Assembly (NCBI GenBank): GCA_021106775.1
Contig: JAIOTL010000411.1
Coordinates: 1-17,463, forward strand
DNA length: 17,463 nt
Reading direction: 5' to 3'
DNA from: Planctomycetota bacterium
GTDB lineage: Bacteria > Planctomycetota > UBA8742 > SKZP01 > JAIOTL01
The notes below the pieces were generated by a model that saw only the letters and a program-made list of their open reading frames with translations, had not been told where the DNA came from and searched no databases. This document shows positions 4,215 through 16,684 of the stretch, one piece after another (the stretch's first letter is position 1; each line of letters starts with the position of its first letter). Position numbers and translations under genes: made by a program.

Positions 4215-5564
4215 ATGAATGAATCGAACAATCAAAAAATCGTTATTGTTTCTGGTACAAGAACACCTTTTCTTAGATGTAACACACAATTCAAGAATAC
4301 GGATTCCTCTGAGCTTGCAAAAATCGTTATTCGCGATTTAATTGACAGACTTGAGATTTCGCCTGAGATAGTTGATACGGCGATTCTCGGTACTACGAAT
4401 TCAAGCACAAATGCCATGAATCTTGCTAGAGAATCGTCGATACGAGCAGGTTTAACGGGTGAAATTAACGCAAGTACGATTTCAAAGGGTTTTGGTTCGT
4501 CGATTGAAGCGATTACTTCAGCGATTGAACGGATACGTTCTGGCAAAGCAAGTGTTGTGATTGCCGGTGGTGCGGATAATATTTCGCAAACTCGAGTCAG
4601 ACTTGATGAGAAATTAATTGAGCATTTCAGCAAAAAGCAAAAAAGTCGAAGTGAAGGTAAAAATATATGGCAAAAAATTCTCGGAATTTTCAATCCTGGC
4701 ACAAAAAAACTAGCTCAGTCGATTAAAGACGAAAAAAGCGGTGAAAATCCTGTTTCTGGCGATTCATTTTTGCACACAGGTGAAAAACTTGCCAGAAAAT
4801 TCGGAATACCAAGGCGGGAACAGGATAATTTTGCAATGCATTCTCACCTTAAAATCCAGAAAGCTATTGAAGAAAACAGATTAAATCCTGAAATGACAAC
4901 CACTTACGCTTATCCAGAATTCACTGCGCAAGGCGTCGACAATTGTCAAAAATCAAATATTTCACTTCAATACCTAAAAAAACAAAAACCTGCTGTCGAT
5001 TCGAATTACGGAAGCATAACATTCGCCAATTCCCAACAACCCTGCGACGGTGCAGCTGTTGTGCTTCTTATGACCGAAGAAAAAGCAATTTCTCTTGGCT
5101 TAAAGCCCATGGGATATATCGAGCATTACACTTTTGCATCAGTTAACAGATTTGATGAATCTGATGCTGAAAAAAATGAAGGTCTATCCGCTGTTTTCGC
5201 AATAGATAAGCTACTTTCGGAAAACAATATCAAGCTTGATGATATTGATTTGTTCGAAATCAACGAAATTACTGCAGCGCATGTTCAAACTTACCGGGAA
5301 ATTCTGAAGTCGAAAGAGTTTTGCAGCAGAATTTTGCATAGGGATGCTGAAATAGGCGAGATTCCCGACCACAAAATCAACTGCAACGGGGGAACAATCG
5401 CTTATGGGAATCCTCCTGGTGCAACGGGTGTAAGGCTTGTACTCTCAGCAGTTTTTGAAATGGCACGCAGCAAACAGAATCGAGCATTAATTGCTTCGGA
5501 AATCGACGGTTCTCAAGGTGTTGCGTTGATAATTAAAAAATTAGAAAAAACATATGGGGATTAA
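4215..5564 (+). CDS. Thiolase-fold protein lacking the catalytic Cys, His and Cys
   Basis: 449 aa, in the size range of FadI-type thiolases. Typical thiolase segments occur in order: RTPF near 16-19, SIEAITSAIERIRSGKASVV then IAGGADNIS (96-124), GEKLARKFGIPRREQDNFAM (189-208), YGSITFANSQQPCDGAAVVL (265-284), DIDLFEINE (343-351), NCNGG...GNPPGATGVR (389-407) and DGSQG (431-435). The catalytic positions are changed: the nucleophilic Cys of the C-x-S-G-x-Q-A motif is Phe93, the His of GHP is Asn399, and the second Cys of the C-x-x-G-G-Q-G motif is Glu429. The Asn-Glu of NEA is kept (N350-E351). The family condenses or cleaves acyl-CoAs through those residues, so this member should not do standard thiolysis; it may bind CoA esters or act as a partner subunit. 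It heads a cluster with the cyclophilin 1 bp downstream. Confidence 0.85.
   Translation: MNESNNQKIVIVSGTRTPFLRCNTQFKNTDSSELAKIVIRDLIDRLEISPEIVDTAILGTTNSSTNAMNLARESSIRAGLTGEINASTISKGFGSSIEAITSAIERIRSGKASVVIAGGADNISQTRVRLDEKLIEHFSKKQKSRSEGKNIWQKILGIFNPGTKKLAQSIKDEKSGENPVSGDSFLHTGEKLARKFGIPRREQDNFAMHSHLKIQKAIEENRLNPEMTTTYAYPEFTAQGVDNCQKSNISLQYLKKQKPAVDSNYGSITFANSQQPCDGAAVVLLMTEEKAISLGLKPMGYIEHYTFASVNRFDESDAEKNEGLSAVFAIDKLLSENNIKLDDIDLFEINEITAAHVQTYREILKSKEFCSRILHRDAEIGEIPDHKINCNGGTIAYGNPPGATGVRLVLSAVFEMARSKQNRALIASEIDGSQGVALIIKKLEKTYGD
5556..5560 (+). promoter_or_regulatory. Ribosome binding site deciding the cyclophilin start
   Basis: GGGGA lies 5 nt before the ATG at 5566 and inside the last codons of the thiolase-fold gene. 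It favours 5566 over the in-frame ATG at 5554, and puts a Sec signal peptide right at the N-terminus. Confidence 0.6.
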
Positions 5565-5565
5565 A

Positions 5566-7026
5566 ATGAGAAGAATTTTATTGATTTTGGTTTGTGTACT
5601 TTTTCTGGTCAGTTTGACTGATGCGAAATCAGGCAAGACCGAGAAATACAAGCTTGAGTACAAATTCGCAGAAAACTCCAGCAGAACATATCTGATTTCC
5701 AGCGAAATGAAGCTTGGAATTAATGACGCAAAACCAAGAAACATTGAGTATGTTATCAAGGTTGAGGATGTTGTTAAAACATCGAAGAAATCGAAAGCGA
5801 CGCTCAAACGCTTTTATCGAGGTTTCAAGTATTCAATGTACGATGTAACAATTTACAACAACATTGACGACAAGATTGAAGCGAAAAAATCGCATTTATC
5901 TGAGATTTTTAAAGCTTTGCAGGATGAAAGTTATGAATTCAGCGTAAGTTCGAGCGGTAAAGTCTCTGGGATTAAAGGAAGCAAGGACCTAATGAAAAAT
6001 GCAATGGTCAAGATATTTGGAAGCTCGAAAAAAACCAAGAAAACTGAACGTACATTTGATTTGCTGGCGGATATTACAGATTCTTCGACACTTGAAGCGG
6101 AAATATGTTTTGTTTACGTACCTCTGAGCCGGTCTTCGCTAAAGGTGGATTCAACATGGAAAAGCAAACCAAAGCGTTGTGTTTTTGAGGTAATGAACTT
6201 CGATTCACCTGAAGAATACAAAGTTGAAGACATATCAACTAAAAACAAGAGAGTGATGTTTTATATCAAATGTCGAGGCAGTGTAGAACCTAAAGAAACC
6301 AAAGGATATAAGGTCGAATCAAATAAAACAAAGGGTGATTTCAAATTTAATCAAACCGATGGTGAACTCCAGGAATTGAATCTGCGCACCAAATCTAAGT
6401 ATGTTTTTTATGCTGAAGATAGTGAAGATGAAGAAAAAAAGGTGGAATATATAAATGAATCCGATCAGACGGTTGAGGTTAAGCTTGTTTCAAGCAGTAC
6501 TGCTGGGAATCCTCGGGTGAAGATTATAACAAGCATGGGAGATATCGTTGTTGAGCTTTTTGAGGATGACACACCAAACACTGTTGCGAATTTCATCGAG
6601 CTTTGCGAAGCGAAGTTTTTCGACGACATCAGATTTCATCGGATTATCAAGGGTTTTATGATTCAAGGTGGATGTCCTTATGCAAAGGGTGAGGTATCGC
6701 AACGAGCAGGCTCAGGCGATGCTGGTTATAAATTTGCTGATGAGTTCGTTGACAAGCACAAATTCGACTCAAAAGGGCTTTTGGCAATGGCGAATAGTGG
6801 ACCCAACACGAACGGCTCGCAGTTTTTCATCACGCTTGGCGCAGCAACCTGGCTTAACGGAAAACACACGATTTTCGGCAAAGTTATTGATGGCATGGAT
6901 ATTGTCGATAAAATCGGTGCTGTCCAGACAAGCAAACCCGGAGATAGACCAGTAGAAGAAGTTTACATCAAGAAAACGGAAATCACACAAAAACGCAACC
7001 ACGAATACAAAGTCAAAAAGGATTAA
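5566..7026 (+). CDS. Exported cyclophilin-type peptidyl-prolyl cis-trans isomerase with a novel N-terminal domain
   Basis: 486 aa. Residues 1-20 are a signal peptide (MRR, a hydrophobic core, then a likely cut after LTDA), so the protein probably works in the periplasm or outside. Residues 316-474 are a full cyclophilin domain that isomerises X-Pro bonds during folding: FHRIIKGFMIQGG (357-369) with Arg359 and Gln367, NGSQFFIT (416-423), Trp429 and His434 are all present. Residues 21-315 are a polar, strand-rich, Lys/Glu/Ser-heavy region I cannot assign. It has repeated short Lys-Ser runs and an acidic stretch EDSEDEEKK (284-292), and could bind a client protein or be a DUF6263-like module. 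The start is 1 bp after the thiolase stop, indicating co-transcription. The pairing of a cytoplasmic thiolase fold with an exported foldase is odd and may be only positional. Confidence 0.88.
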   Translation: MRRILLILVCVLFLVSLTDAKSGKTEKYKLEYKFAENSSRTYLISSEMKLGINDAKPRNIEYVIKVEDVVKTSKKSKATLKRFYRGFKYSMYDVTIYNNIDDKIEAKKSHLSEIFKALQDESYEFSVSSSGKVSGIKGSKDLMKNAMVKIFGSSKKTKKTERTFDLLADITDSSTLEAEICFVYVPLSRSSLKVDSTWKSKPKRCVFEVMNFDSPEEYKVEDISTKNKRVMFYIKCRGSVEPKETKGYKVESNKTKGDFKFNQTDGELQELNLRTKSKYVFYAEDSEDEEKKVEYINESDQTVEVKLVSSSTAGNPRVKIITSMGDIVVELFEDDTPNTVANFIELCEAKFFDDIRFHRIIKGFMIQGGCPYAKGEVSQRAGSGDAGYKFADEFVDKHKFDSKGLLAMANSGPNTNGSQFFITLGAATWLNGKHTIFGKVIDGMDIVDKIGAVQTSKPGDRPVEEVYIKKTEITQKRNHEYKVKKD

Positions 7027-9754: not shown

Positions 9755-9785
9755 TCTTTGTTCTATTGTCTCTGTGGCAAAAAAG

Positions 9786-9810
9786 AGACAGGCAAGATGC
9801 CTGTCCTACT
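9786..9810. repeat. Family R right-end fragment with perfect hairpin
   Basis: GACAGGCA-AGA-TGCCTGTC (9787-9805) is a perfect 8-bp stem, followed by CTACT. It corresponds to one end of the family R element at 2780-2849. Confidence 0.6.
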
Positions 9811-9864
9811 GTTTTCATGGAAATGACAACTGCTAAATACATTTGTCCGTAAACACCTTGTGTA

Positions 9865-11290: not shown

Positions 11291-11410
11291 TTATCTGACG
11301 GTGATAAGAGGCATCAGCAATGATGAATCCGAGATATTACAGATGGGCGATTGTAATTTTCCTCTGGTTTTAGTGAATTTCACAACCTCGGATTTAGCAT
11401 AATTTGCAAG
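11291..11410 (-). pseudogene. In-frame 3' continuation of the caspase-fold gene beyond a TAG
   Basis: Directly after the TAG at 11413-11411, the same frame stays open for 39 codons and closes at TAA (11293-11291). It encodes LANYAKSEVVKFTK, TRGKLQSPIC and a final NISDSSLLMPLITVR. This fits what follows the DGxVTxxEL segment in bacterial caspase-like proteins: a helix, a Gln-x-Pro strand and a closing Pro-Leu strand. A single base change (for example GAG to TAG) would explain the interruption. Nothing suggests that this piece is translated on its own, since it has no start codon or ribosome binding site of its own. Confidence 0.7.
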
Positions 11411-14400
11411 CTAGGAAACTGTTACAAATCCATCGTTGTTACCTGACATTTCATCGGCTTTTCCGGTTAAACCCTCGATAATATAAGATGTAAATAGTGT
11501 TGTACCATTGCGTTTGTACATGCCACCTCTTTGAGTTTTGTCGGAAGCAAGCATGGTTGTCGTTTTGTTGTTGGCAATACCTGTGAATACCGCAGAAGTT
11601 TCCGAGTTGAAGATGTCGAACTCCGATGTGTTATCAACAATTAGGAGCTTCTGCTCACTTGAGATTTTTCCGAATGTTTTTCGCAAAAAATCCACTGTTA
11701 TTGCTGTTTCTTCGAGGTTCGTGGGAATACAGTCATAAGGCAGGATGTAGCTTATACCAGCATTAGCATCTCTTATGCTGTGCCCAGAAAAATATACCAC
11801 AACTATATCATCCTTTCTTGAAGTGCGAACCAATGAGTTTAATCCGTCTTCAATTTCAGATTTTGTAGCTTCTGTGCCGATTAGGTTTTTCAAAGTTTTC
11901 AGCGTTATCGTCAATTGCTGCGCTTTCATTGTCTTTGCGAATTCCTTTGCATCATTTTCCGCCGTATTAAGTTGTGGTATAGTCAAATCATCGTACTCAC
12001 CGATTCCAATGCACAATATCCGCAGTTCTCCGCTTGTTTTCCTTAAATTTAGGACAAGATTTAACTCGGATTTTTTCTCAAGTGAATCAACCACCGAATA
12101 CTTCAGATAACTTTTGTCCTGCATCAACAAGACGTTGTATTCTTTAACTTCGTCGATAATAAAGTCGTCAACCATTTCAATTTGAACGAATTTCTTGTTT
12201 TCAAGCACTTTTCCGTTTGTGAATTGGTCGATTTTGATGTTTTTCTGCCCTTCAGGTGTATAAATCCTGAAACTCAGGTCAAAGTCCGGTACAAACGTAT
12301 CAAGCTCTTTTAGTCTGCGTTTTTGCAGCACGACCAACGGAGGAGCGTCAAACACGTTGTCAGGCGCAAAGACATTAACAATTGAAATTCCAAGCTTATC
12401 AAGAATGTCGGAAGAAGTTACAAGATGCGTTTTCTCGATCCAAACCGGTATTTCCTCGCCTGCGGAGTTAATGTAGCCGTTGATTTTATAAAAAAGTCCT
12501 GCCTGTGTGTTGATTGTAATCACACTGCCTGCTTTTAGCGTTGCTAGAGGATGAGAATACTGACTCGGCGCGCTGCGAAGGTATGCAAAATCAGTAAAAA
12601 CATACGCCTTCATCGACGAGATTACTGATTGAACAATCGGGATTTCCAAAACAGGAACATAAATGGTCTTGCTTAACTTGACAATCTTGGAATCAACGAA
12701 AAATGCGTTGCTGTAATCGATGTCTATATGATAACTCACATATTTTTTGCTGAAATCGATTTCGGGCAGCTCAATTTCGATGATTCTACTTGTGCCTGCA
12801 CTGATTTTCAGCACATCCTGCTCTTCGTAATCAATCATAAATGACGTTATTATCGCATCCGCACGACCGGAGTTGTTGAGAATCAGATTAATTTTGCCGG
12901 CTTCGTCAGGCTCGACAATCCCATTCTTGCCGCCCGAATCTTCTGCGAAATACCAGTTAAGAGCGAGCTTCGGCACAGGTCTGTCCGTTGGTGCAATATC
13001 AATTGATTTTTCTGCCAGTAGAGTTTTATAGGTATAAATTTTCAAATCTACTTTCGGCACACCTTTAAGAAAACCTGTCGGATACTTGAATTTTACAGTC
13101 CTCAAGAATTTCCTGCCTTCATCGATTCGACCGAAATAAACTTTCATCGAATCCAGAACTTTTCCCGTATCCGAGAAAATCATATCTCCAAAGACCCGCG
13201 AAAGCTGATTCCCTTGATTTTCAACAGTAAACTCGAATTTATGCACGTTTGATTCACGCTCAAGTGGTGAATTCGCGTTTTCAATGAGTTTTGTTTCAGC
13301 AATAGCAAGTTTTGACTCGTCTTCCGAAGGTTCCCCATTCGTCCAATTTATCGAGTCCTTACCGATTTTGAACTCGTCAATATCTAGATTAATCAGCTTT
13401 AAGCAATCGTCAGAATCAACGAGAATAGCCTCTGCAGAAGGAGAAAATTCAAAGCTCATTTTGCTGTTACCATTAAGAATTTCAGGATATTTCCTGTTTC
13501 TTTTGAAGAAAGATTTAACCTCAAATTTCGACTCACCACCTTTTTCGATGACATAAGCATATTTTCGCAAATCCGAACAAAGTTTGAATTTGTATGACTC
13601 CGAATCAAGTTTAAGGGTTTTTGCATTTTGGAAATCAAGTAGAGGATGGATGCGCAAATTGCCGTTTCCGTGCATAAAAATGATTCGCTGATAATCCGAC
13701 TTCGGTACTAAAAACCTGAAATCGACGATATCACTGTCAAAAGTGTTCGAATAATACGCGATAATTGTAGGTTTCTTGTTGTCAAGACTGTAAATCTTGA
13801 ATACATCCGAATCTCCGTTATTACCGACCTGAGAAAAGAGAATACCGATTAAATCCTTCATCGGCGGGAATGCAATTGATTTGATGCTGGTAATTTTCTC
13901 AGCAAGCTTAATCTCCGATAAGAATGTCGTGCCGATTTCATTGAATTTATAAATGCGTACCGAATTTTGTGAAGCGATTGCAAAAAGATTGTCAATCGGC
14001 GAGAATGCAAAAACTGCAACACCTGCCTGTGTCAGGATTTCAGAACCATCACTTACCGAGTAAATTGAGAATTCTTGAGCCTTGTTTATTACCGCAACAT
14101 GTGAACCAGTCTGATTGATTTCAAAACTCTGCAATGCACTTTTTGTATCAATCGTCTTGAAATTATTGAAGTCTGACCAATTGTAAAGGTCGATAATGCC
14201 CGTTTCATACCCCACCGCAAACCTCGCAGTTGTATTCGCGCTGTCAATATCAACAACATCCGCATCACGACATTTAAGCTCGAGCATTATATTCTCGCCA
14301 ACTAGGTCGGGAACATCAGCATCTTTATAATGTGTTATCGAAAGTCTGAAATTTACATTCGATGAAACGAACTCATGAGAAGAATATTGGAATGGTGTTG

Positions 14401-14476
14401 CAGGCAGAGTATCGGTAAAACATGAGCAAAGAAGCATCAATGTCGAAATTAAACTGATTTTGAAATATATTTTCAT
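11411..14476 (-). CDS. Caspase-fold (C14-like) lipoprotein with beta-propeller, CARDB-like and SH3-like regions; catalytic Cys missing, ends at a premature TAG
   Basis: 1021 aa. The signal peptide ends in LCSC, giving a lipidated Cys19. Residues 73-370 contain WD40/propeller-like blades (for example VAVFAFSPIDNLFAIASQNS at 153-172 and FEFSPSAEAILVDSDD at 342-357). Residues 410-610 look like Ig or CARDB-type sheets, with NGIVEPDEAGKI at 518-529. Residues 622-687 resemble a bacterial SH3 domain (AYLRSAPSQYSHPLATLKAG). From 817 on there is a caspase-like domain: LRILCIGIGEYDD, LNTAENDAKEFA, and DIVVVYFSGHS with the catalytic His899. The nucleophile motif DACHSG reads DNTSEF (948-953), so Cys is replaced by Thr950 (ACA codon). 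The frame ends at TAG after NNDGFVTVS, short of the usual C-terminus. AGGTG precedes the start by 5 nt. Inference: a surface or periplasmic scaffold or pseudopeptidase. The TPR gene follows. Confidence 0.82.
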   Translation of the reverse strand: MKIYFKISLISTLMLLCSCFTDTLPATPFQYSSHEFVSSNVNFRLSITHYKDADVPDLVGENIMLELKCRDADVVDIDSANTTARFAVGYETGIIDLYNWSDFNNFKTIDTKSALQSFEINQTGSHVAVINKAQEFSIYSVSDGSEILTQAGVAVFAFSPIDNLFAIASQNSVRIYKFNEIGTTFLSEIKLAEKITSIKSIAFPPMKDLIGILFSQVGNNGDSDVFKIYSLDNKKPTIIAYYSNTFDSDIVDFRFLVPKSDYQRIIFMHGNGNLRIHPLLDFQNAKTLKLDSESYKFKLCSDLRKYAYVIEKGGESKFEVKSFFKRNRKYPEILNGNSKMSFEFSPSAEAILVDSDDCLKLINLDIDEFKIGKDSINWTNGEPSEDESKLAIAETKLIENANSPLERESNVHKFEFTVENQGNQLSRVFGDMIFSDTGKVLDSMKVYFGRIDEGRKFLRTVKFKYPTGFLKGVPKVDLKIYTYKTLLAEKSIDIAPTDRPVPKLALNWYFAEDSGGKNGIVEPDEAGKINLILNNSGRADAIITSFMIDYEEQDVLKISAGTSRIIEIELPEIDFSKKYVSYHIDIDYSNAFFVDSKIVKLSKTIYVPVLEIPIVQSVISSMKAYVFTDFAYLRSAPSQYSHPLATLKAGSVITINTQAGLFYKINGYINSAGEEIPVWIEKTHLVTSSDILDKLGISIVNVFAPDNVFDAPPLVVLQKRRLKELDTFVPDFDLSFRIYTPEGQKNIKIDQFTNGKVLENKKFVQIEMVDDFIIDEVKEYNVLLMQDKSYLKYSVVDSLEKKSELNLVLNLRKTSGELRILCIGIGEYDDLTIPQLNTAENDAKEFAKTMKAQQLTITLKTLKNLIGTEATKSEIEDGLNSLVRTSRKDDIVVVYFSGHSIRDANAGISYILPYDCIPTNLEETAITVDFLRKTFGKISSEQKLLIVDNTSEFDIFNSETSAVFTGIANNKTTTMLASDKTQRGGMYKRNGTTLFTSYIIEGLTGKADEMSGNNDGFVTVS

Positions 14477-14618: not shown

Positions 14619-14699
14619 TGTCATTCCCAACTTGATTGGGAATCCAGAATCTGCGATATTCAGCATATTCTCTGGATTCCTGCTTTCGCAGGAATGACA
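14619..14699. repeat. Family M inverted-repeat element, copy 1
   Basis: An 81-bp element bounded by TGTCATTCC and GGAATGACA. It folds into two hairpins, ATTCCCA...TGGGAAT on the left and ATTCCTGC-TTTC-GCAGGAAT on the right. The reverse complement of 16605-16684 aligns to it closely, so the two copies face each other around pyruvate kinase. It is 64 bp before the pyruvate kinase start and probably lies in or near its leader. Confidence 0.75.
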
Positions 14700-14763: not shown

Positions 14764-16284
14764 ATGAAATTGAGTTCAACAAAAATAGTCTGCACAATAG
14801 GTCCCGTAAGTAAAGATGAGGAAACCCTAAAAGGATTGGTTGATGCTGGTATGTCAGTTGCTCGACTCAATTTCTCGCACGGTACTCACCAAGAGCATAA
14901 AGAGAATTTCGATTTAATCCGCAAAGTCGAGGCTGAAAGCGGACGTTCCATCGCTATTCTGCAGGATTTGAGCGGTCCAAAAATTAGAATCGGCAAATTC
15001 GACAAACCGCCTGTAAAACTAAAGCCAGGTTCGCAATTCACAATTATCGCGGGTGGTGCTGAAATCGGTAATGAAACCAAAGTTTGCTGCAATTATCCCT
15101 ACCTGGCAGACGACCTAAAACCCGGCAATATCGTTCTTCTCGCAGACGGCACAATTGAGCTTGAAGTTGTAGAAATCATTGAAAACAGAGTTATCTGCAA
15201 TGTCATTCTCGGTGGAGAGCTTGGAAATCACAAAGGTATTAATTTAAGGTCTGGCACGCTCAAAGCACCTGCATTAACCAACAAAGACAAAGAAGACCTT
15301 GAATTCGGGCTGAATTTGGGTGTTGATTTAATCGCTTTGAGTTTTGTTCGCAGTGCTTCTGATATTCTCGAAGCTCGCAGCATTATTGAAAAACATGGTC
15401 TGCGAAAGCACATTATCGCAAAAATCGAACGCCATGAAGCAATTAAGCATTTGGATGAAATTATCGATGTAACAGACGGTGTTATGGTTGCTCGCGGAGA
15501 TTTGGGTGTTGAAGTCGCATTCTCCGAGGTTCCGATTCTGCAGAAACAAATAATAAATAAATGCAACAGACGTGGAAAACCCGTTATCGTCGCAACCCAA
15601 ATGCTGAAAAGCATGATAGCTTCTCCAAGACCTACACGGGCGGAAGCAAATGACATTGCAAACGCGATAATTGATGGTGCAGATGCGGTTATGCTCAGCG
15701 AAGAGACCGCAATCGGGAATTATCCAGTTGATGCTGTGAAAACCATCACTCAAATCGCAGACACAATGGAAGCCGAGCAGCACTGGCGCGAAAGATATCG
15801 AAAAGAGCTTGAAGACCTGGTGAGCAAAGACAAAAGTCGATTGATTCAGGATGTAATTTCGCAGTCAGCATTTGAGATTTCGGGCAAGCTTGATGTTGTG
15901 TGTTTACTTGTTCCGACAAGCAGCGGTTCAACTGCGCGTAAAATTGCTCGATTTCGTCCAAAAGCCAAGATTCTCGCATTAAGTGATAACCTTGAAACAA
16001 TCAAGTTTCTTACGCTTTGCTGGGGTGTAATCCCTTATTACGTTCCAGGTTTCGGGCATCTTGGGGACATTATCGCTGGTGCAATGCAAATTGCGCTAAA
16101 TGAGGGATTCGGAAAGCCAGACGACCATGCGGTTATTATTGCCGGCTATCCAGTCGATAAACCTGGGACGACGAATCTCATTAAACTCGGTAAACTTCCG
16201 AAGAGGAAAGAATCAGCAGAAATTACTGACAGAATCTTTTCAGGCGATTTTACTAAAGGAATTTCCGGCGAAAGATTTCTATAA
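14764..16284 (+). CDS. pyk: Pyruvate kinase
   Basis: 506 aa, close to the usual bacterial length of 470-590 aa. It makes pyruvate and ATP from phosphoenolpyruvate and ADP, the last step of glycolysis, in the cytoplasm. Key segments: KIVCTIGPVS (7-16), MSVARLNFSHG (30-40) with Arg34, Asn36, Ser38 and His39, ILQDLSGPKIRIG (65-77) with Lys73, and the active-site signature IIAKIERHEAI (217-227) with Lys220 and the metal ligand Glu222. Also present are MVARGDLGVE (241-250) with the metal ligand Asp246, VATQMLKSM with Thr278, and the SPRPTRAEANDIANAIIDGA region. The C-terminal domain (357-470) contains PTSSGSTARKIARFRP, the typical effector-side region. The ribosome binding site is strong. It is a single-gene unit bracketed by two family M repeats, with a family R repeat 30 bp after the stop. 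Identification is very secure. Confidence 0.97.
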   Translation: MKLSSTKIVCTIGPVSKDEETLKGLVDAGMSVARLNFSHGTHQEHKENFDLIRKVEAESGRSIAILQDLSGPKIRIGKFDKPPVKLKPGSQFTIIAGGAEIGNETKVCCNYPYLADDLKPGNIVLLADGTIELEVVEIIENRVICNVILGGELGNHKGINLRSGTLKAPALTNKDKEDLEFGLNLGVDLIALSFVRSASDILEARSIIEKHGLRKHIIAKIERHEAIKHLDEIIDVTDGVMVARGDLGVEVAFSEVPILQKQIINKCNRRGKPVIVATQMLKSMIASPRPTRAEANDIANAIIDGADAVMLSEETAIGNYPVDAVKTITQIADTMEAEQHWRERYRKELEDLVSKDKSRLIQDVISQSAFEISGKLDVVCLLVPTSSGSTARKIARFRPKAKILALSDNLETIKFLTLCWGVIPYYVPGFGHLGDIIAGAMQIALNEGFGKPDDHAVIIAGYPVDKPGTTNLIKLGKLPKRKESAEITDRIFSGDFTKGISGERFL

Positions 16285-16310
16285 TACGCTATCAAAGAAG
16301 TTTTAAGTAT

Positions 16311-16444
16311 TGGTAGGACAGGCTTCCTAGCCTGTCATGCTGATGCTTAAGGAGTCAGGCATTATCTCTACAAAACCGACTAATTCGATGAGCATTAATC
16401 GGGAAACGCAAAGAAAAAGCATGCTTGCTTGCCCTGACCTACCG
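16311..16444. repeat. Family R repeat, copy 2, split by an inserted segment
   Basis: The left part (16311-16357), with the perfect hairpin GACAGGCT-TCCT-AGCCTGTC at 16317-16336, and the right part (about 16430-16444, CCCTGACCTACCG) match the intact copy at 2780-2849. Between them about 63 bp are extra, made of the 24-bp direct repeat (16367-16390) and an ATGCTTGC unit. It begins 27 bp after the pyruvate kinase stop, in the same gene-relative place and orientation as the copy after the DUF1624 gene. Confidence 0.7.
16367..16390. repeat. 24-bp direct repeat, copy 3, inside the split family R element
   Basis: Begins TCTACAAAACCGACTA and ends TTCGATG. It matches the copies at 9621 and 9688 apart from a few bases. 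Confidence 0.6.
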
Positions 16445-16604: not shown

Positions 16605-16684
16605 TGTCATTCCTGAGAAAGCAGGAATCCAGAAATTGAATTTTCATTGTATTCGCTGGATTCCCAATCAGGTCGGGAATGACA
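16605..16684. repeat. Family M inverted-repeat element, copy 2
   Basis: An 80-bp element bounded by TGTCATTCC and GGAATGACA, in inverted orientation relative to the copy at 14619-14699. It carries the hairpins ATTCCTG...CAGGAAT and ATTCCC...GGGAAT. Its right end is 45 bp before the clpP start, so it probably lies in or near the clpP promoter or leader. Confidence 0.75.

What the first reader, a model, noticed from the sequence alone, without database searches (positions are those of the whole stretch)
11291..11413. In-frame TAG interrupts a caspase-fold lipoprotein 39 codons before its natural end
Seen directly: the minus-strand frame stops at TAG (11413-11411) right after NNDGFVTVS, then runs on without a stop through 39 codons to TAA. 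Established: in bacterial caspase-like proteins a DGxVTxxEL segment is followed by a helix and a Gln-x-Pro/Pro-Leu ending, which is what the continuation encodes. Inference: the ancestral codon was probably GAG, AAG or CAG. The options are a recent nonsense mutation, programmed readthrough yielding two C-terminal forms, or an assembly error. TAG is rare as a stop here; only one other gene in the window (the DUF1624 gene, 2751-2753) uses it, and its frame closes soon after, which argues against global TAG recoding.
Basis: partly seen in the sequence, partly recalled or inferred. Interest (0 to 1): 0.72.

Follow-up and report, generated by a model that had tools for sequence, protein, structure and literature searches.

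The report
Truncated, catalytically dead bacterial caspase-like lipoprotein
A stop codon cuts the last 39 residues off a bacterial caspase-like protein that had already lost its catalytic cysteine, most likely an ordinary late truncation of a dead enzyme rather than a special way of reading the code.

Summary
In detail: a 1021-codon minus-strand frame ends at TAG (11413-11411) and runs 39 sense codons further to TAA (11293-11291). The continuation is homologous to the C-terminus of the caspase (Peptidase_C14) domain. It raises the score against a profile built without the window from 109.8 to 121.9 bits; 1 of 2000 shuffles and 1 of 5000 unrelated stop-free stretches do as well. The ten best genome relatives all end 36-41 residues after the same column. 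TAG stands at the start of the last helix; 82 of 90 profile relatives have Glu there.

Not noticed before: the domain was already a pseudoenzyme. The catalytic His is kept, but the Cys of 120 of 120 relatives is absent, with no Cys between residue 916 and the TAG. Genome-wide TAG recoding is very unlikely: no in-frame TAG in 4010 codons of 11 other genes. Programmed readthrough has only weak hints.

Best reading: a nonsense substitution truncating a pseudo-orthocaspase in an unplaced bacterium. A base error cannot be excluded, since no reads, genome or close relative were available. Ordinary; low interest.

The parts
11411..14476 (-). caspase-fold lipoprotein ORF, 1021 codons plus TAG; N-terminal signal with a lipobox-like LCSC (by eye, no predictor run)
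11411..11413 (-). in-frame TAG, codon 1022, at the start of the last helix of the caspase fold
11294..11410 (-). 39-codon continuation, homologous to the end of the caspase domain: last helix (residues 1020-1036 of the model) and a short strand (1045-1047)
11291..11293 (-). TAA, the likely original stop
11630..12016 (-). Peptidase_C14 match in the uninterrupted part (residues 821-949)
   Evidence: E 1.4e-10
11780..11782 (-). retained catalytic His899 (YFSGHS)
   Evidence: His in 120 of 120 relatives
11627..11629 (-). Thr950, aligned with the catalytic Cys of 120 of 120 relatives (the alignment puts the next residue, Ser951, there); no HSG follows
12473..12586 (-). weak SH3_3 match (residues 631-668), below Pfam's cut-off
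12479..13369 (-). linker (residues 370-666) weakly matching profile positions 533-835 of TIGR03900 (MXAN_5808 type), below cut-off
   Evidence: E 7.1e-14, 50.7 bits against a cut-off of 660.95

Best explanation
The gene encodes a probable exported lipoprotein with a C-terminal caspase-fold domain that had already become a pseudo-orthocaspase (His kept, Cys gone, active-site loops eroded) and so presumably acts as a binding or scaffold module, not a protease. A single substitution then created TAG at the start of the last helix. Ribosomes terminate there and release a 1021-residue protein without the last helix and last strand of the fold. Because catalysis was already lost, loss of the C-terminal edge was probably tolerated, and the 39 codons still look intact because too little time has passed for them to decay. 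Shown: TAG position, homology of the tail, end position in the ten genome relatives, loss of Cys. Inferred: lipoprotein export, order of events, tolerance, efficient termination.
For: Tail is homologous domain sequence. The ten best genome relatives end 36-41 residues after the column. No stop inside any of 70 matches found in 52 of 395 genomes, 47 of which run past residue 1022 (at most two candidates per genome were scored); none in the C14 matches listed for 109 of 296 genomes (list cut). Catalytic Cys in 120 of 120 profile relatives and in 10 of 10 genome relatives, absent here. Columns conserved in the relatives (58 in all) and kept here: up to His 17 of 24, His to Cys motif 1 of 7, Cys loop 1 of 6, from there to the TAG 7 of 17, tail 2 of 3. 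No in-frame TAG in 4010 codons of 11 other genes. Some relatives also lack the end of the fold (11 of 90 end 3-26 residues after the column), so its loss can be tolerated. Pseudo-orthocaspases are a known class (PMC6426788, PMC3501461, passages seen).
Against: No second copy of the locus, no reads and no close relative, so a base error in one contig gives the same picture. The tail keeps Q-x-P, as selection on a still-translated tail would also do. RNA around and after the TAG folds somewhat better than shuffles (z -2.05; -1.74 and -1.87; 1 of 54 control windows reaches -2.05), which could be read as a readthrough element. Erosion is not confined to the active site: the part up to His also keeps fewer conserved columns than any of 116 relatives, so plain divergence is part of the picture.
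Confidence: 0.66

Rival explanations
1. The TAG is a base error, or a minority strain variant fixed into the consensus of a metagenomic contig; the real gene reads on to the TAA and makes a 1061-residue protein.
For: One record only, no genome held, no orthologue found. All 47 genome matches crossing the site are open. The 11 other genes are uninterrupted, so nothing suggests a decaying genome.
Against: The eroded active site upstream makes a tolerated real mutation plausible; no other sign of poor sequence in the 11 other genes.
Confidence: 0.23
2. Programmed or selected leaky readthrough: most ribosomes stop, some insert an amino acid at UAG and make a form with the complete fold.
For: Tail conserved in sequence and ending where relatives end. 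Mildly stable RNA around the stop.
Against: None of the 47 genome matches that cross the site has a stop there, though these are distant relatives. The context is not a hotspot by the E. coli results in PMC11126739 (section 10 read): T-rich upstream and C, not G, downstream; that study found no correlation of readthrough with predicted mRNA structure. No suppressor tRNA in the window; the genome is not available.
Confidence: 0.06
3. TAG is a sense codon in this organism (reassignment, suppressor tRNA or pyrrolysine) and the protein is simply 1061 residues long.
For: The frame is open across the TAG.
Against: No in-frame TAG in 4010 codons of 11 other genes: P 0.018 at a frequency of 0.001 per codon and 1.9e-9 at 0.005 (the genes were delimited with the standard stops, but most match known families). 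The DUF1624 gene ends in TAG. That the site is unlike known pyrrolysine sites is recalled.
Confidence: 0.02
4. The shortened end is a selected new C-terminus of a repurposed pseudo-caspase, fixed in this lineage.
For: 1021 codons upstream stay open although the active site is lost. Two profile relatives, P0047 and P0053, share a similar shorter end 19 residues after the column.
Against: The tail has not decayed, so the change would be very young; no lineage data.
Confidence: 0.03

Closest known systems
Bacterial pseudo-orthocaspases (p20 domain with substituted His-Cys dyad; PMC6426788, PMC3501461, passages seen)
   Same: Caspase p20 fold with a substituted catalytic residue inside a larger protein.
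   Different: Dyad is His-Thr (or His-Ser by the other alignment) without the following HSG, not the commonest Tyr-Ser; the frame is cut by TAG before the last helix; a lipoprotein-like N-terminus.
Orthocaspase-type 'caspase family proteins' (P0008-P0127, several named as Saprospiraceae or Chitinophagaceae; L041-L050)
   Same: Same fold and C-terminal pattern (GLxGxAD ... VT..x(L/I)..Y ... QxP); same end position in the ten genome relatives.
   Different: They carry the catalytic Cys (120 of 120 and 10 of 10) and no stop; identity about 20-36%.
Bacterial genes truncated by a nonsense mutation (general class)
   Same: A single in-frame stop with homologous sequence after it.
   Different: Only the last 39 of 1061 codons are lost, so the product may remain functional.
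Programmed stop codon readthrough
   Same: In-frame stop followed by an extension with homologous sequence.
   Different: No stop at this place in the distant relatives examined; no stimulatory context shown.

Membership tests
Peptidase_C14 / caspase fold | sequence match to the family profile | tested here: met
   Pfam PF00656 E 1.4e-10, 41.7 bits against cut-off 21.4; PADLOC caspase model E 2.1e-8
Peptidase_C14 / caspase fold | caspase three-dimensional fold | tested here: met
Active orthocaspase/metacaspase | catalytic His-Cys dyad | tested here: not met
   His899 kept; no Cys at the motif; Cys in 120 of 120 relatives
Pseudo-orthocaspase | p20 domain with substituted dyad | tested here: met
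Pseudo-orthocaspase | no p10 domain | not tested
   the p10 profile of PMC6426788 was not built here
Pseudo-orthocaspase | absence of proteolytic activity | not testable with these tools
   needs an assay
Caspase, EACC1-associated type (NF047832) | score over the curated cut-off | tested here: not met
   62.6 bits against 140
Nonsense-truncated gene | homologous sequence continues in frame after the stop | tested here: met
Nonsense-truncated gene | stop present in the organism, not only in the assembly | not testable with these tools
   no reads, no second assembly
Programmed stop codon readthrough | stop and extension conserved among relatives | tested here: inconclusive
   0 of 70 genome matches have a stop inside, 47 cross the site, but all are distant; no close relative was found
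TAG reassignment | TAG used in frame in many genes | tested here: not met
   0 in 4010 codons of 11 other genes
TAG reassignment | suppressor tRNA or missing RF1 | not testable with these tools
   no genome held; no tRNA in the window

The most novel reading that the evidence does not exclude
A catalytically dead caspase-fold lipoprotein makes two C-terminal forms from one gene through leaky UAG: a short form lacking, and a rarer long form having, the last helix and the edge strand that (recalled) mediates dimer contacts in caspases, so that readthrough sets the ratio of two assembly states.
Probability: 0.04. Interest if true: 0.55.

Novelty: new member of a known kind. Interest (0 to 1): 0.17.

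Why it matters
Taken as real, it suggests that once a bacterial caspase-like domain has lost catalysis, its C-terminal edge can be lost too. It is also a caution: an open frame after a stop, even with clear homology, is expected of any recent truncation and does not by itself argue for readthrough. Consequence for the wider field is small.

Tried and rejected
Global TAG recoding: very unlikely. Suppressor tRNA in the window: none found; Rfam: no match at gathering score. Promoter- and terminator-like sites around the tail: at shuffle level (2 against a mean of 1.6; 0 against 0.4). RNA structure: z -2.05 by the tool, 6 of 200 shuffles as good; -1.74 for the same stretch and -1.87 for the 100 bases after the TAG in my script; 0 of 21 windows of the caspase gene and 1 of 33 of other genes reach -2.05. 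Suggestive at most. Codon usage of the tail: inconclusive.

Placing the organism failed. The pyruvate kinase scan of genome contigs gave 7 loci at 35-42% identity from several groups. Residues 380-860 have no relative but the window's own protein at E 0.01 (only the 7990 candidates sharing most words were scored). A viral-contig scan gave no relative. A search of three genomes for TIGR03900 was uninformative: the matches listed lie at profile positions 74-413, not in the part (533-835) that the window resembles, and 12 of 14 control genomes also match. The genome samples are the phylum of L004's genome, which I take to be Bacteroidota from its record title; it need not be the window's phylum.

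Rows dropped and results against: of the 242 relatives only the 120 listed were used. At the TAG column 30 of 120 have a gap; 29 of those have 0-27 residues after it, and many look like proteins cut off or shifted in frame, which I did not check on DNA. Of the 90 with a residue at the column, 11 end 3-26 residues after it; some, such as P0047 and P0053 with similar ends, may be real shorter ends. The relatives came from a profile that included the window (A2), but the scoring profile was built without it. In the first null, 18 of 2000 stretches reached the score; stretches of the caspase gene were allowed there, and with the gene left out 1 of 5000 did. In one search the query included the tail, so reaching past residue 1022 is partly by construction; 23 of 70 matches do not cross it, 2 of these ending at 1022. 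The ends of the ten loci do not depend on that. The aligned place of the lost Cys differs between alignments (Thr950, Ser951). The EF-hand-like pattern was chosen after looking at the column counts. PMC13345370 was opened at its outline and abstract only and not used; papers and 66 other than those cited were seen as listings only.

Full report
What is there. On the minus strand, 14476-11411 is one frame of 1021 codons ending in TAG at 11413-11411. The frame continues for 39 sense codons to TAA at 11293-11291. The protein begins with a signal-like stretch and LCSC (lipobox by eye, no predictor run). It has weak beta-propeller and SH3_3 matches, and a Peptidase_C14 match at residues 821-949. 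Residues 370-666 weakly match part of TIGR03900, and the caspase part matches NF047832, both below their cut-offs. No whole genome is held for the window.

Is the continuation really part of the protein? Yes. A search with residues 800-1061 (X at the stop) found five proteins besides the window's own, and all five have sequence beyond the site. A search with their alignment found 242 relatives, of which the 120 listed were used. A profile built from these 120 without the window aligns across the stop. The window scores 121.9 bits with the tail and 109.8 without it. 1 of 2000 shuffles of the tail and 1 of 5000 stop-free translations from outside the gene reach that score. At the TAG column 82 of the 90 relatives with a residue have Glu, 4 Asp, 2 Ser and 2 Asn; 30 of 120 have a gap. 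Beyond it the window keeps L, Y, V and Q-x-P. Not all relatives go on: 11 of the 90 end 3-26 residues after the column, some perhaps cut by contig ends, some perhaps with real shorter ends.

In 395 genomes of one phylum (that of L004's genome, Bacteroidota by its record title) 52 gave 70 matches, none with a stop inside; 47 of the 70 run past residue 1022 (at most two candidates per genome were scored). The ten best were fetched. All ten end 36-41 residues after the column, against 39 in the window. So the TAA at 11291-11293 is very likely the old stop. In these ten the column itself reads E in 3, M in 3 and S, T, A, G once each, so the ancestral residue is less certain than the larger set suggests.

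The domain was already dead. The catalytic His (120 of 120 relatives) is kept as His899. The catalytic Cys (120 of 120) falls on Thr950, or on Ser951 in the alignment; either way there is no Cys between residue 916 and the TAG, and no HSG follows. Of 58 columns conserved in the relatives the window keeps 17 of 24 up to the His, 1 of 7 between His and the Cys motif, 1 of 6 in the Cys loop, 7 of 17 from there to the TAG, and 2 of 3 in the tail. Relatives as low as the window: 0 of 116, 2 of 120, 0 of 120, 0 of 105 and 13 of 80. So the window is divergent throughout, and most so around the active site, while the tail is not unusual. The ten genome relatives all have the Cys. Such pseudo-orthocaspases are known: 858 of 9,994 bacterial orthocaspases in PMC6426788 lack the dyad (10 of 1078 sequences in Bacteroidetes), and 84% of bacterial homologues in PMC3501461 have it intact (passages seen). 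As 1021 codons stayed open while the active site eroded, the protein was probably kept for a non-catalytic role, and the nonsense change came later. This order is inference.

Why not recoding or readthrough. Eleven other genes have no in-frame TAG in 4010 sense codons; 8 end in TAA, 2 in TGA, 1 in TAG (the genes were delimited by standard stops, but most match known families). There is no tRNA in the window. The context (TTTCC TAG C) is not a hotspot by the E. coli study PMC11126739 (section 10 read, passages), in which T upstream lowers readthrough, G just downstream raises it, and no correlation with predicted RNA structure was found. In that study UAG was replaced mainly by Tyr, Gln or Lys. 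RNA around the stop is somewhat stable, which I count as weak evidence against my reading. The base after the other stops is T in 8 of 11, A in 2 and C in 1 (ClpP), while this TAG has C; this fits a stop that was not built as one, but the sample is small.

What remains open. With one contig and no reads, a base error or a minority variant looks the same. I give a real truncation 0.66, an error or minor variant 0.23, readthrough 0.06, a selected new end 0.03 and recoding 0.02. These are judgements, not computed; the checking of the report did not change them.

Verdict. The result is most likely an ordinary truncation at the end of a pseudoenzyme, of low interest.

Noticed in passing
window 11411-11446 (minus), and P0008-P0127: In 65 of 90 relatives the 12 residues ending at the TAG column match an EF-hand-like loop D.[DN].[DN]..[ILV]...[ED], and the pattern occurs nowhere else in the 120 proteins (pattern chosen after seeing the columns). 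11 of 61 aligned proteins have weak Pfam EF-hand_1 matches, best E 0.01. A possible calcium loop in front of the last helix of these orthocaspases; 2 of 10 genome relatives have it. The window's loop lacks the first Asp, and its last position is the TAG. PMC6426788 mentions EF-hand motifs in 7 archaeal orthocaspases (passage).
   Followed up: partly
2744-2807 and 16275-16338; also 2819-2849 and 9782-9812: Dispersed repeat with a palindromic core (GACAGGCTTCCTAGCCTGTC), 83% identical over 64 bases, lying across the ends of the DUF1624 and pyruvate kinase genes; a second shorter repeat lies nearby.
   Followed up: no
14619-14699 and 16605-16684: Two pairs of inverted arms (29 bases each, 93-97% complementary) lie on either side of the pyruvate kinase gene.
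   Followed up: no
6-1511: Protein weakly matching DNA glycosylase/endonuclease III families with a C-terminal tail of about 250 residues rich in Lys, Ala and Pro, recalling histone H1-type tails.
   Followed up: no
5554-7026: Cyclophilin domain behind a DUF6263 domain in one protein with a signal-like N-terminus (signal by eye).
   Followed up: no
P0002 (the window's own protein): The database cluster of this protein is listed with 2 member sequences but 1 contig; whether the second member is a separate sequence could not be seen.
   Followed up: no
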